Positions 1 to 3,909 of a DNA stretch of 31,095 nt are shown one piece after another. The DNA is from a virus. Location: positions 1 through 31,095 of IMG/VR virus record IMGVR_UViG_3300029319_000290, one strand, 5' to 3'. The translations under genes were made by a program, and so were the position numbers. The notes under the pieces were generated by a model, which saw only the letters and a program-made list of their open reading frames with translations, was not told the origin of the DNA and searched no databases. Every line of letters begins with the position of its first letter. Position 1 is the stretch's first letter.

Positions 1-897
1 ATCAAATATGAATGCATCGTAAATATACAATACCATTTTACTAAATTTATTATCAAGTAAACCTAAAACATTTTTTAGAATCTTAGAATTTCTCTCTGTT
101 TCATATGCTTGTATAAAATAGTTAAATAGCTTTTGAGGATTCATATCCTTAAAGTTTCTTTTATAGAACCTACGTTTCAAAATTGGAGTTTCTATATAAC
201 CTTTACTAATATAAATATCCCATAACCTAAAAATGTAATCGTTGGTTTTTTGAAAATATTCTATATGTAAAAATTCTTTTGGTATACCGCCATAAAGTAT
301 TTGAAAGCTTATTTTTTTAGAATCATTATATTGTTCATCTGTAAGAGTATCTGTATCAAAATATAGTTTACCTAAATATCTATGAAAGCTACCTTCAGGT
401 TGTTTCATGCCTATAAGTTCTGCTATCAATCTTAAATGATATGCGTCAAAATCAAATTCTGCAATAATACCACCTGGGTGTCTACTTATATATTTTGACC
501 TTGTTCCGTCATCTTTATTAAGTGCTGCGTAATTTATACCATTATTAGAATTTGCAGGTCTTCCTGTTGTTGTAAATAAATTGTATTTTGTATATTCAAA
601 ACCTTTTTCAGTCCAAAGACCATTTTGTTCAATTTTTCTAAAAATACCTACCACATTATCATTATAGCTTTGAATCATAGAATCCGAAACATCAGGAATC
701 GCATGCGAGAGAGTGTCTAAATGCTCTATTTCTTCTCTTTTTTTATTTTCAGGTATAATATCATATATGTTATATCTGTTTCCGTAAAGCCTTTTGTAGA
801 ATGTGTTTATAGGAAGGTCAAGCTCATTAGGTTCTATTGACCTATTATAATGCAGATAATGCTTGATTTGTATTTTATTATGTAATTCACTTAACAC
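1..897 (-). CDS. Divergent family A DNA polymerase, polymerase domain (3' end beyond left edge)
   Basis: The frame is open from a GTG at 897 to the window edge, 299 codons, with an in-frame TAG directly upstream of that GTG. It reads as the palm and fingers of a family A (Pol I/T7 type) polymerase. A TTTGRP segment lies at residues 109-114. Motif A is DFDAYHLRLIAE at 149-160, with D149 as the probable metal-binding Asp. The O-helix ends KKISFQILYGG at 194-204, with K194 and F198 matching Pol I K758 and F762. NYFIQ at 259-263 matches the conserved Asn/Gln segment. Motif C is IYDAF around D294. Only about 108 residues precede TGR, so the 3'-5' exonuclease and most of the thumb are absent. The start is uncertain: GTG lacks a separate SD and the next ATG is at codon 74. 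A split gene or short-leader start is possible. The family call is confident; the activity is inferred. Confidence 0.82.
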   Translation of the reverse strand, partial: MLSELHNKIQIKHYLHYNRSIEPNELDLPINTFYKRLYGNRYNIYDIIPENKKREEIEHLDTLSHAIPDVSDSMIQSYNDNVVGIFRKIEQNGLWTEKGFEYTKYNLFTTTGRPANSNNGINYAALNKDDGTRSKYISRHPGGIIAEFDFDAYHLRLIAELIGMKQPEGSFHRYLGKLYFDTDTLTDEQYNDSKKISFQILYGGIPKEFLHIEYFQKTNDYIFRLWDIYISKGYIETPILKRRFYKRNFKDMNPQKLFNYFIQAYETERNSKILKNVLGLLDNKFSKMVLYIYDAFIFD

Positions 898-898
898 C

Positions 899-916
899 TA
901 TCTAATATAATAAAAA
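899..916 (-). promoter_or_regulatory. Promoter-like AT-rich element before the polymerase gene
   Basis: On the coding strand this reads TTTTTATTATATTAGATA. The identical 18 bases occur upstream of the bS21 gene at 21291-21308. It is a one-base-shorter relative of the ATATTTATAT motif found at the other gene starts. A promoter role is inference. If correct, the polymerase leader would be only a few bases long. Confidence 0.4.
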
Positions 917-937
917 TATTTGATAAATAAAAATTTT

Positions 938-1795
938 TTATACTAAACCTTCAGGAAAATAATATGGGTCGTCGTTAATATCGTATTGATATTTTGCACA
1001 CCAATAATTTGCTTTTACTTCTGCCTTAAATTTACTGCACCATCCATTTTCAAAGAATATACAACTTGTACAATTTTGTCTAGGAGGTACCATTGAATTT
1101 TCTTGTTCATCAGGATAATTACCTAATTGATATGCAGCTGGTAAGTTTTCAGGTATTTTATCACCTTCAGGATATAATCTGTTTCCAAGCTCATCTCTTA
1201 ATACGCCTTTTGGTATATATGGCCACTTCATATATTCTGTTGGAAGTACAAAATTATGTATATCTTTAATATCAGCTCGTGCAGCTTGAATTTTAAGATT
1301 GTTATAATGAATTGCAGATGTTGTTAATTTAAGTTTTAATTCTACAAATTTAACAGGTTGATGATATGGTGTGCTTTGTTTTTTATAGTATTTATATTGC
1401 TCTTTATTTATTTCTGTAATTTCATTTGTATGTTGAACGTGTGCAAAGTATCTTGTATATTCACCTTTTTCTTTTTCTTTATCTGTAAGTTTGTGTTTAT
1501 ATGGCACAGGCTCCTTAAAAGTTCTTTTGTAATTAGGTTTTAACTTGTCATATACAAAATTTTGTGCAACACTTCTTTTTTCTAATGGATATAATTTTAA
1601 CTGCTTTTCTTTTTCAAAAGTAAGTTTTTCATCTGTACCATGAGGTATATCAGCATAATATGTTATTGGTCCTATATACTCTTCAAACTCGTGTGCTGTT
1701 GTAGGTTCGCCGTTTTCGATAAAATATTTTTTAATCATCCACTCACCGCCTTTGGTAAAACCTTTTCTTATATATTTCTTTTTATAGTGTTTCAT
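938..1795 (-). CDS. Baseplate-region protein with C-terminal HiPIP-like four-cysteine motif
   Basis: This is a 285-residue protein starting at ATG 1795, which overlaps the upstream stop as TAATG, with AAGGA upstream. A longer reading from 1837 would overlap the previous gene by 43 bases and is less likely; ATG 1738 is another possible start. The N-terminal two thirds are polar and rich in Lys, Tyr and Thr, and I do not recognise them. The last 50 residues carry C242-x2-C245-x7-C253-x12-C266, with aromatic residues around them (CIFF, GWCSKF, NYWCAKY). This layout closely resembles the iron-sulfur site of high-potential iron-sulfur proteins. It is the last gene of the tail block, after the hub-like gene. 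I infer a virion or baseplate component that binds a metal cluster. Zinc instead of Fe-S is possible. Confidence 0.7.
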   Translation of the reverse strand: MKHYKKKYIRKGFTKGGEWMIKKYFIENGEPTTAHEFEEYIGPITYYADIPHGTDEKLTFEKEKQLKLYPLEKRSVAQNFVYDKLKPNYKRTFKEPVPYKHKLTDKEKEKGEYTRYFAHVQHTNEITEINKEQYKYYKKQSTPYHQPVKFVELKLKLTTSAIHYNNLKIQAARADIKDIHNFVLPTEYMKWPYIPKGVLRDELGNRLYPEGDKIPENLPAAYQLGNYPDEQENSMVPPRQNCTSCIFFENGWCSKFKAEVKANYWCAKYQYDINDDPYYFPEGLV

Positions 1796-3909
1796 TATGC
1801 AGTTATCCTTAGAGCAGATTCTAGTGTTGTTGTCCAATCATCTTGACCTACAGTATGCTTAACAGCTTTTACCTGAAAACAGTGGTCTTTTTTCATAACC
1901 TGCGGTGTATAATCTGTTGCAAATAAATAACCCCATGATAATCCACCTATACCGTCAAGTGTTAAGTCTACACCAATAGGTATTGCAGTTCCTCCACTAC
2001 TTGCTGGAGAATTCTCACCAAATGCATTGTGATATGCTTTCATAGCTCCTAATGCAGCATCACATGTTTCGTCTGACCTGTTTTCTGCTAGTTCGTGAAA
2101 TGCTTCTCTAATATTTTTTTTCAATGTGTCTAGAGTTGGTGTTTGTGAGCCAGCTTCTGATTTTTCCATTCCTCCTTCACAACCTTCTCCTGCATTTTGT
2201 GCACCATCAAGCCTCTGCTCACCTACCATAGTATCTTTTATTCCTTCAGCATAATCTAAATAAGTATACATTGCTTCATTTGAATTTGATTGCTCACTAT
2301 TACCTGCTTTCTTTTGAGTTCCCATCATTACAGCATGTCTAAGAGATTGAGGTATGTCTGTACTAACACCCCAACTTCTTGCAGAAGTATTACCTAAAAG
2401 ATTCATTACAGGTACCGTAGCTTTAGGTGGTTTTGGTATATAGTTTCTATCTATTACTCTCATTACTGATGGGTCCTTAGGGTCGTCTACCAATTCTAGG
2501 TCCCAAAAACTTCCACAAACTTCATTGACCTTTTTTGCAACAGCCATTATATATTCATCTATTGTTTTAGCCTGCATTGATGCCTGCCATAAAAAATAAG
2601 TATTTAGATATATCCTTCCTAATAAACAATAATTTCCTTCACCTTTGGCTGTGTCTCTTTTAAGACCCGAACGTGATTCAAGTGTTGTCGCTGCAGCCGT
2701 TTTATGAATTTCATTATATCCAGCATTTCCTCCAATACCAAATTCAGAGTACGGACTTAGCGAGCCATCAACTGCATTTGCACTTGTCCAGTGTGCGTGG
2801 CCTGGTACAATACAAACCCAAGGGTCTGTCGAACCCCAAGGTTTTTTAATAGAATCAGCAACCTTTAATCTGCTTTTAGAGCTATCAAGTCTCCAAACAT
2901 GTGATTTTTTCCAATGGCCTTGAAAAGGACTAAAATTAGATTTATTATATAATGCCTTTGATGTTTTATAATTAGGAGAAATAGGAGAAAGACCAGATAT
3001 AATTGCAGACTCCCACCATGCCCATGATACATAATAATTTGTTTTAGATGAACCAAACCATCCTGTAAGAGTACTCCACCAACCTGCATCTTCTTTTGCG
3101 TCTTCATCTAGATTTATTGAAAATCCAGCTATTGTATCTGTTCTCCAAACCTTACTTTTTTTAATTTGGCTTTCGGCCATGTCTTTTAATACAATCTTCA
3201 TCCATTGTCCTGAACCATCATCCAACATACCACCACTTTTACAACCTGCTGTTACTTTTTTAGGAGCAACATTAATTGGTCCACTTACATAAGCCTTTCC
3301 TGGTGAGTCTACTGTTATTTCACATTTATATGATTTTGATGATGGGTCAAAAGACCAGTTAAAATCTGATATAACTCCACATATTCCTTCTGTACTTCCA
3401 TTATTTGTTTTTGAATATGAATTTATTTTATCTTGAAGGTCATACATACTATTTGAATTGGTAATAGCGTCGTTTGGTATTCTTTCTATAGGTGAACCAT
3501 CTGATTTCATATTCCAACCCCATTGTGCGAAAGCTGTTAAACCTGGTACAAAATAAGCTCTTTGTGCTTTTCTTAATTGTTCTATAGAATATAAAGTAAA
3601 AGTAATTGTACCTTTTCTCATTGCACCATTAGCCCCTGTTGTTCCTACCTCTATTGTATTTATTGCAGGTTGCGGTACAATTCTACCTGTTTCGGATTCA
3701 TCGTGTGTTGTATAAAAGTCGTCTACTGTTCTTTTTTCAAAATCAGCCAATGGAAAAGGTTCACTAGAAAAAGATGTAAGTGACATCCAAGTCTTTTTTG
3801 AGACCTTCCATTTGTCGCTTGGTTTAGCAGCACCTCTATCATTTACCTCCTGTATAAACCATTCAGGTATTAGTCTACCTGTAATATATCCATCTGAGTA
3901 TTTTGCCAT
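1795..3909 (-). CDS. Putative baseplate hub-like structural protein
   Basis: The protein has 704 residues and starts at ATG 3909 after CGGAGATATAA. The N-terminal third has tail-protein character, including TITFTLYSIEQLRKAQRAYF near residues 103-122 and DFNWSFDPSSKSYKCEITVDS near 188-208. A Trp/Gly-rich middle follows. The C-terminal end, from DLTLDGIGGLSWG through QVKAVKHTVGQDDWTTTLES, resembles the closing strands of tail hub proteins of the T4 gp27/gpD kind, where a conserved His and a Trp-x-Thr pattern recur. It sits in the baseplate block after the gp53-like gene and overlaps the start of the next gene. A hub role is inferred from position and this weak C-terminal resemblance. It could also be another baseplate wedge or tail-associated protein. 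Confidence 0.55.
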   Translation of the reverse strand: MAKYSDGYITGRLIPEWFIQEVNDRGAAKPSDKWKVSKKTWMSLTSFSSEPFPLADFEKRTVDDFYTTHDESETGRIVPQPAINTIEVGTTGANGAMRKGTITFTLYSIEQLRKAQRAYFVPGLTAFAQWGWNMKSDGSPIERIPNDAITNSNSMYDLQDKINSYSKTNNGSTEGICGVISDFNWSFDPSSKSYKCEITVDSPGKAYVSGPINVAPKKVTAGCKSGGMLDDGSGQWMKIVLKDMAESQIKKSKVWRTDTIAGFSINLDEDAKEDAGWWSTLTGWFGSSKTNYYVSWAWWESAIISGLSPISPNYKTSKALYNKSNFSPFQGHWKKSHVWRLDSSKSRLKVADSIKKPWGSTDPWVCIVPGHAHWTSANAVDGSLSPYSEFGIGGNAGYNEIHKTAAATTLESRSGLKRDTAKGEGNYCLLGRIYLNTYFLWQASMQAKTIDEYIMAVAKKVNEVCGSFWDLELVDDPKDPSVMRVIDRNYIPKPPKATVPVMNLLGNTSARSWGVSTDIPQSLRHAVMMGTQKKAGNSEQSNSNEAMYTYLDYAEGIKDTMVGEQRLDGAQNAGEGCEGGMEKSEAGSQTPTLDTLKKNIREAFHELAENRSDETCDAALGAMKAYHNAFGENSPASSGGTAIPIGVDLTLDGIGGLSWGYLFATDYTPQVMKKDHCFQVKAVKHTVGQDDWTTTLESALRITA

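What the first reader, a model, noticed from the sequence alone, without database searches (positions are those of the whole stretch)
1..897. Stand-alone or split family A polymerase domain beside T4-like baseplate genes
T4-superfamily phages normally replicate with a family B polymerase (gp43). Here the gene following the baseplate block has TGR, motif A, O-helix and motif C of family A, but only about 108 residues before TGR, with an in-frame stop directly upstream. The exonuclease domain and most of the thumb are therefore not in this reading frame. Either the polymerase is split, with its N-terminal part elsewhere in the genome, or it is a truncated enzyme.
Basis: partly seen in the sequence, partly recalled or inferred. 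Interest (0 to 1): 0.72.

Follow-up and report, generated by a model that had tools for sequence, protein, structure and literature searches.

The report
Thumbless accessory family A phage polymerase
The gene is a naturally small DNA polymerase, lacking its proofreading and thumb parts, that a large group of T4-like phages carries as an extra enzyme beside a normal replication polymerase; the group was described in 2024 as divPolA1, but its job is unknown.

Summary
In detail: window 1-897 (-) is a family A polymerase palm/fingers protein with about 108 residues before TGR. It is neither a split gene nor a sequencing artefact. Seven relatives start at the same codon, complete ones are 336 aa, and selection is purifying. 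It belongs to a monophyletic phage family (at least 585 IMG/VR contigs), published from 14 genomes as divPolA1 (Yutin 2024, PMC11348598). Members are about 335 aa (the window's type, exonuclease remnant gone) or 415-460 aa; the thumb is missing in both. Genomes that carry it also encode a regular polymerase: family A (immuto), B (10 of 17 larger contigs, Mel-JY01) or C (the window's closest relatives). So it is an extra enzyme, not a replacement for gp43. Its place is fixed: baseplate hub, a 4-Cys protein, divPolA1, then gp32, UvsX, FEN and helicase. Both catalytic aspartates are invariant, but the dNTP pocket is rebuilt: E710 to His, R754 never Arg, H881 to Tyr, E883 to Ser/Ala. That was checked in loci picked without using those motifs. 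Best explanation: a low-processivity, non-proofreading gap-filling polymerase working with gp32/UvsX/FEN. The activity is inferred, not tested. New member of a known kind.

The parts
1..897 (-). divPolA1-type family A polymerase palm/fingers, 5' 299 codons (GTG start; last ~37 codons lie beyond the contig end)
   Evidence: complete relatives 336 aa; AF2 model of L045 pLDDT 92.6, Z 25.6 to Pol I large fragment; dN/dS 0.03-0.16 against seven relatives
559..561 (-). R113 = Pol I R668 (TGR motif), retained
451..453 (-). D149 = catalytic D705 (motif A), retained
   Evidence: 82/82 and 79/79 in the control set
436..438 (-). H154 at the position of Pol I E710 (sugar steric gate)
   Evidence: His 82/82 and 79/79 in loci chosen by the TGR region only
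328..330 (-). Y190 at the position of Pol I R754 (triphosphate contact)
   Evidence: Tyr 81/82; never Arg in 79 control sequences (Y44 I22 L6 M5 V2)
292..318 (-). O-helix: K194 (K758), F198 (F762), Y202 (Y766)
13..21 (-). motif C Y293-D294-A295: catalytic D882 retained, H881 to Tyr, E883 to Ala
   Evidence: Tyr 82/82 and 77/77, Asp 82/82 and 77/77, Ser/Ala at 883 in all
898..900 (-). in-frame TAG directly upstream of the GTG start
   Evidence: same in L002, L009, L010; TAC in L003, L004, L005 and L008, which have TAA seven codons upstream
938..1837 (-). conserved neighbour just upstream ('p276' family) with a 4-Cys cluster near its C-terminus; not an exonuclease by any library searched
   Evidence: homologues found in 67 of 80 loci, typically just upstream; no Pfam or PHROG match
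1795..3909 (-).
   Evidence: homologue upstream in 45 of 47 loci with at least 4 kb upstream

Best explanation
The gene encodes a divPolA1-type accessory DNA polymerase: a family A palm and fingers with an intact two-aspartate catalytic centre, no thumb and no 3'-5' exonuclease. In the phage it lies at the head of the gp32 (SSB), UvsX, FEN and replicative helicase block and most likely fills short gaps left by FEN at lagging-strand or repair/recombination intermediates, while a separate full-size polymerase (family C in the window's closest relatives) copies the genome. Lack of a thumb predicts short, distributive synthesis; lack of the exonuclease predicts no proofreading; the replaced E710/R754/H881/E883 residues predict altered nucleotide selection. 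Shown here: gene structure, motif residues, predicted fold, co-occurrence with other polymerases, synteny, purifying selection. Inferred: polymerase activity, gap-filling role, low processivity, partnership with FEN and gp32.
For: Fold: AF2 pLDDT 92.6 (336-aa form) and 93.2 (449-aa form); best matches Pol I large fragments, Z 25.6 (Taq: 304 residues at 2.8 A) and 27.7. D705, D882, K758, Y766, R668, N845 and Q849 (primer/template and nucleotide contacts) are invariant or nearly so in 82 members and again in 77-79 sequences of a control set chosen without motif A or C, so catalysis on a primer-template is probably kept. Thumb: 14-17 residues between the 'E..GL' end of the first palm helix and TGR in most members, about 30 in others, at most 68, against 120 in E. 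coli Pol I. Co-occurrence with full polymerases: immuto PolA 777 aa, Mel-JY01 PolB 855 aa, 10/17 contigs with PolB, four records of the window's group with family C. Synteny: gp32 and UvsX downstream in 40/44 loci with enough flank, hub upstream in 45/47, always same strand; FEN next in the block; UvdE in 12 loci. Purifying selection.
Against: No activity has been measured for any member. Loss of R754, H881 and E883 and the His at 710 could weaken or redirect catalysis. Synteny with FEN/gp32 shows co-regulation at most, not joint action. The window's own genome is a 31-kb fragment, so its regular polymerase is not seen directly. Gene position next to the baseplate could also fit a virion role.
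Confidence: 0.5

Rival explanations
1. A specialised lesion-bypass or recombination-repair polymerase rather than a general gap filler: no proofreading and an altered pocket let it extend from damaged or recombination-derived primers, working with UvsX and, in the window's clade, with UvdE.
For: UvsX in the same block in 40/44 loci with enough flank and UvdE in 12 loci of the short-form group; no exonuclease; pocket residues replaced.
Against: UvdE is absent from most loci; nothing shows bypass ability; the other genes of the block (gp32, FEN, helicase) are general replication genes.
Confidence: 0.2
2. A ribonucleotide-using enzyme (primase- or RNA polymerase-like), because the sugar-gate Glu is replaced and motif C (YDS/YDA) recalls the HDS of single-subunit RNA polymerases.
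For: E710 to His in all and E883 to Ser/Ala in all aligned sequences; E710 as steric gate is established knowledge of Pol I, and PDB entries of the E658A (Bst numbering) mutant with rCTP are among the top matches. Yutin 2024 raised RNA polymerase for the sister group divPolA2.
Against: His is bulky and could still act as a gate; immuto already encodes a DnaG-type primase; best fold matches are DNA polymerases.
Confidence: 0.13
3. A non-catalytic structural or regulatory relative that uses the fold as a DNA-binding clamp or replisome or virion part.
For: Several conserved contacts are lost and the gene adjoins the baseplate block.
Against: Both catalytic aspartates, K758 and Y766 are invariant in two differently chosen sets, which a dead enzyme would not need.
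Confidence: 0.12
4. Half of a split replicative polymerase, or a gene broken by a frameshift or intron.
For: Short N-terminus and a stop directly upstream.
Against: Relatives have the same start, complete 336-aa ORFs and no upstream coding; no PF01612 domain in 26 of 27 records, and the one hit lies in a separate full-length enzyme; regular polymerases coexist.
Confidence: 0.02

Closest known systems
divPolA1 (Yutin et al. 2024, Virol J 21:200, PMC11348598)
   Same: Extra family A polymerase beside a regular PolA, B or C; truncated thumb, exonuclease activity lost, palm catalytic residues kept, replication genes downstream; immuto gp001 is a named member and is 39.6% identical to the window protein.
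   Different: The window protein is of a 336-aa form in which the N-terminal exonuclease remnant is gone, whereas the paper describes an inactivated but present exonuclease domain. The paper's main text does not mention the E710/R754/H881/E883 replacements (its figures were not readable here).
divPolA2 of barbaviruses (same paper)
   Same: Accessory PolA without a recognisable thumb, beside PolB.
   Different: Own N-terminal globular domain and variable neighbourhood, as reported in the paper; not compared here by sequence.
Bacterial DNA polymerase I, Klenow/KlenTaq/Bst fragment
   Same: Palm and fingers fold (Z 25-28), catalytic aspartates, K758, F762, Y766, Q849.
   Different: No thumb, no exonuclease, 15-20% identity, E710, R754, H881 and E883 replaced, fingers shortened.
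T4 gp43 (family B) and bacterial Pol III alpha (family C)
   Same: These are the regular polymerases found in the same genomes.
   Different: Unrelated or distantly related enzymes; they coexist with this gene rather than being replaced by it.

Membership tests
divPolA1 | Sequence relative of the named members (immuto gp001) | tested here: met
   39.6% identity over 92% of the query, E 5e-51; 82 members form one group, support 100/100 against four reference polymerases
divPolA1 | Palm catalytic residues conserved | tested here: met
   D149 and D294 = D705 and D882
divPolA1 | Thumb truncated | tested here: met
   16 residues between the palm helix and TGR, against 120 in E. coli Pol I; secondary structure of the model shows no helices there
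divPolA1 | 3'-5' exonuclease inactivated | tested here: met
   The remnant domain is absent from the 336-aa form; no exonuclease profile match. In long forms it is present, but residue alignment by sequence was not reliable
divPolA1 | Regular DNA polymerase in the same genome | tested here: inconclusive
   Met in immuto, Mel-JY01, LR756508, 10/17 contigs (PolB) and G002, G003, G005, G009 (family C); the window itself is a 31-kb fragment
divPolA1 | Replication genes downstream | tested here: met
   gp32 and UvsX in 40/44 relatives with enough flank; cut off in the window itself
DNA polymerase family A (Pfam PF00476) | Profile match above the curated cut-off | tested here: inconclusive
   Window fragment 22.2 bits against 34.3; all seven close relatives with a complete gene (G001-G007) are over the cut-off, some only once neighbouring pieces are joined
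DNA polymerase family A (Pfam PF00476) | Canonical pocket residues E710, R754, H881, E883 | tested here: not met
   Replaced in all of 82 plus 77-79 control sequences
DNA polymerase family A (Pfam PF00476) | DNA polymerase activity | not testable with these tools
   needs biochemistry
Split family A polymerase | Separate gene for the exonuclease/N-terminal half | tested here: not met
   PF01612 found in only 1 of 27 records, inside a full-length polymerase; fragmentary records cannot exclude unseen genes

The most novel reading that the evidence does not exclude
The family has changed its nucleotide sugar and triphosphate recognition (His in place of the steric-gate Glu, no Arg at 754, Ser/Ala in place of motif C Glu) and makes RNA, mixed or otherwise unusual short strands in the phage replisome, kept across swaps of the main polymerase between families A, B and C.
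Probability: 0.13. Interest if true: 0.75.

Novelty: new member of a known kind. Interest (0 to 1): 0.42.

Why it matters
The main replicative polymerase of these phages differs in family between relatives, but this small second polymerase stays at the same place with the same altered active site in hundreds of contigs. That points to a distinct task in the phage replisome that a regular polymerase does not cover. The invariant substitutions give a directly testable prediction (which nucleotides, which primer-templates) for a family with no reported biochemistry that I could find, and a thumb-free, exonuclease-free 336-aa family A enzyme would define a near-minimal polymerase core. The group itself was reported in 2024; this window adds the exonuclease-less form and the active-site pattern.

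Tried and rejected
Frameshift or intron near 897-940: rejected, since relatives share start and length. Upstream ORF 938-1837 as the missing N-terminal half: rejected, because it also sits upstream of long-form members that have their own N-terminal domain, and it has no exonuclease match. Primase role because no primase was seen at first: weakened, since immuto gp091 is DnaG-like. S707 to Asp as an invariant feature: withdrawn; it looked invariant (82/82), but the search pattern contained it, and the control set shows D32 S27 E13 T5. Exonuclease residues by sequence alignment: not reliable. phmmer against PDB sequences with the window protein gave no hits. Cellular relatives: one scan of 84,980 species genomes found none, limited to peptide-pattern sensitivity. 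Published members MK892584 and LR796625 could not be fetched, so the length range of the published set is unknown to me. No RNA polymerase appears in the PDB rows shown; that is no proof of absence.

Full report
Observation. Window 1-897 (-) is one open frame that starts at GTG 897, directly after an in-frame TAG, and runs off the contig end. The protein matches Pfam DNA_pol_A weakly (22 bits, cut-off 34.3) and PHROG_17 'DNA polymerase' (1e-8). The window is a 31,095-base virus record; nearby genes match phage portal, major head, terminase and PhoH families.

It is not broken. In L002 (99% identical) the same TAG-GTG occurs. In L003, L004, L005 and L008 the start is ATG at the same codon with TAA seven codons upstream. 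Complete near relatives are 336 aa. dN/dS against seven relatives is 0.03 to 0.16, so the short form is a functional gene under purifying selection. The window lacks only about the last 37 codons.

It is an extra polymerase. Flavobacterium phage immuto has the short gene (441 aa) and a separate full-length PolA of 777 aa. Microcystis phage Mel-JY01 has the short gene (408 aa) and an 855-aa PolB. The 484-kb record LR756508 has the short gene (452 aa), PolB pieces and a family C ORF. Of 17 larger contigs with the short gene, 10 also carry PolB and none shows a second PolA. In the window's own group, four records carry a family C (DnaE-type) polymerase: G002 and G005 (1118 aa each), G003 (cut by the contig end) and G009. 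A stand-alone family A exonuclease domain was not found in any of 27 records; the only hit is in immuto's full-length enzyme. The split reading is therefore not supported.

Family. Eighty-two members form one group with support 100/100 against four reference polymerases, on a very long stem. There are two size classes: about 321-346 aa and 414-460 aa; a few records with in-between lengths probably reflect an uncertain start codon. In the longer class the N-terminus folds as a small alpha/beta domain that aligns with the start of the Pol I large fragment (model pLDDT 93.2; M. smegmatis Pol1 Z 27.7, 410 residues aligned). In the window's class that domain is missing. Both lack the thumb: in most of the 70 members measured 14-17 residues separate the 'E..GL' end of the first palm helix from TGR, in others about 30 and at most 68, against 120 in E. 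coli Pol I. The 336-aa model (pLDDT 92.6, pTM 0.88) aligns 304 residues to KlenTaq at 2.8 A, Z 25.6.

Active site. In E. coli Pol I numbering, D705, D882, K758, Y766, R668 and Q849 are invariant and N845 nearly so, while E710 is His, R754 is Tyr (81/82), H881 is Tyr and E883 is Ser or Ala (82 sequences). Because the scan used peptide patterns that include motif A and motif C, part of that conservation could come from the search itself. A second scan used only the TGR region. In its 80 loci E710 is His in 79/79, R754 is never Arg (Y44 I22 L6 M5 V2), H881 is Tyr in 77/77, and E883 is S60/A17. S707 to Asp, invariant in the first set, is not invariant in the second. Six loci show another YDE string further on by regular expression; in the alignment no sequence has Glu at 883.

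Neighbourhood. In 80 loci the gene lies, always on the same strand, behind a hub-like baseplate gene (45/47 with enough flank) and a 4-Cys protein (67/80, the window's 938-1837 ORF), and ahead of gp32 and UvsX (40/44 with enough flank), FEN and the DnaB/gp41 helicase; UvdE occurs in 12 loci. This resembles the replication-recombination block of T4-like phages.

Known? Yes. Yutin et al. 2024 (PMC11348598, read) named the group divPolA1 from 14 genomes including immuto, with truncated thumb, inactivated exonuclease, and a regular PolA, PolB or PolC in each genome. A search of the library for the name found only that paper and its preprint, so no experimental work was found.

Mechanism. Conserved primer-template contacts and metal-binding aspartates argue for template-directed synthesis; no exonuclease argues against proofreading; no thumb argues for short synthesis; the FEN/gp32/UvsX context suggests gap filling during lagging-strand or repair synthesis. 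These steps are inference from the fold and from established Pol I biochemistry. The altered sugar gate leaves open a ribonucleotide-related role, put at 0.13.

Noticed in passing
window 938-1837 (-): A 299-aa protein with a conserved-looking 4-Cys cluster (CTSC-x7-C-x12-C) and no Pfam or PHROG match sits just upstream of the polymerase gene; homologues are found in 67 of 80 loci, typically just upstream.
   Followed up: partly
L152 17340-18680 and 18679-20000 (G009:112340-115928): The family C polymerase of this 145-kb contig is spread over two overlapping frames (447 and 750 aa), both of which match the start of the Pol III alpha domain; in G002 and G005 it is one 1118-aa frame.
   Followed up: no
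LR756508 260623-266900 and 47415-48068: The 484-kb phage carries PolB pieces spread over two ORFs about 4 kb apart plus a family C type ORF of 575 aa, besides the short PolA.
   Followed up: no
L154 6913-9840: A 976-aa phage protein ends in a Por secretion system sorting domain, which suggests a Bacteroidota host for this group.
   Followed up: no
L005 13964-14977: A UV damage endonuclease (UvdE) gene lies between the short polymerase and gp32 in the window's group, 12 of 80 loci.
   Followed up: partly
G023:C1:32201-34377: PolB of this contig is in two ORFs (653 and 315 aa), possibly a split gp43.
   Followed up: no
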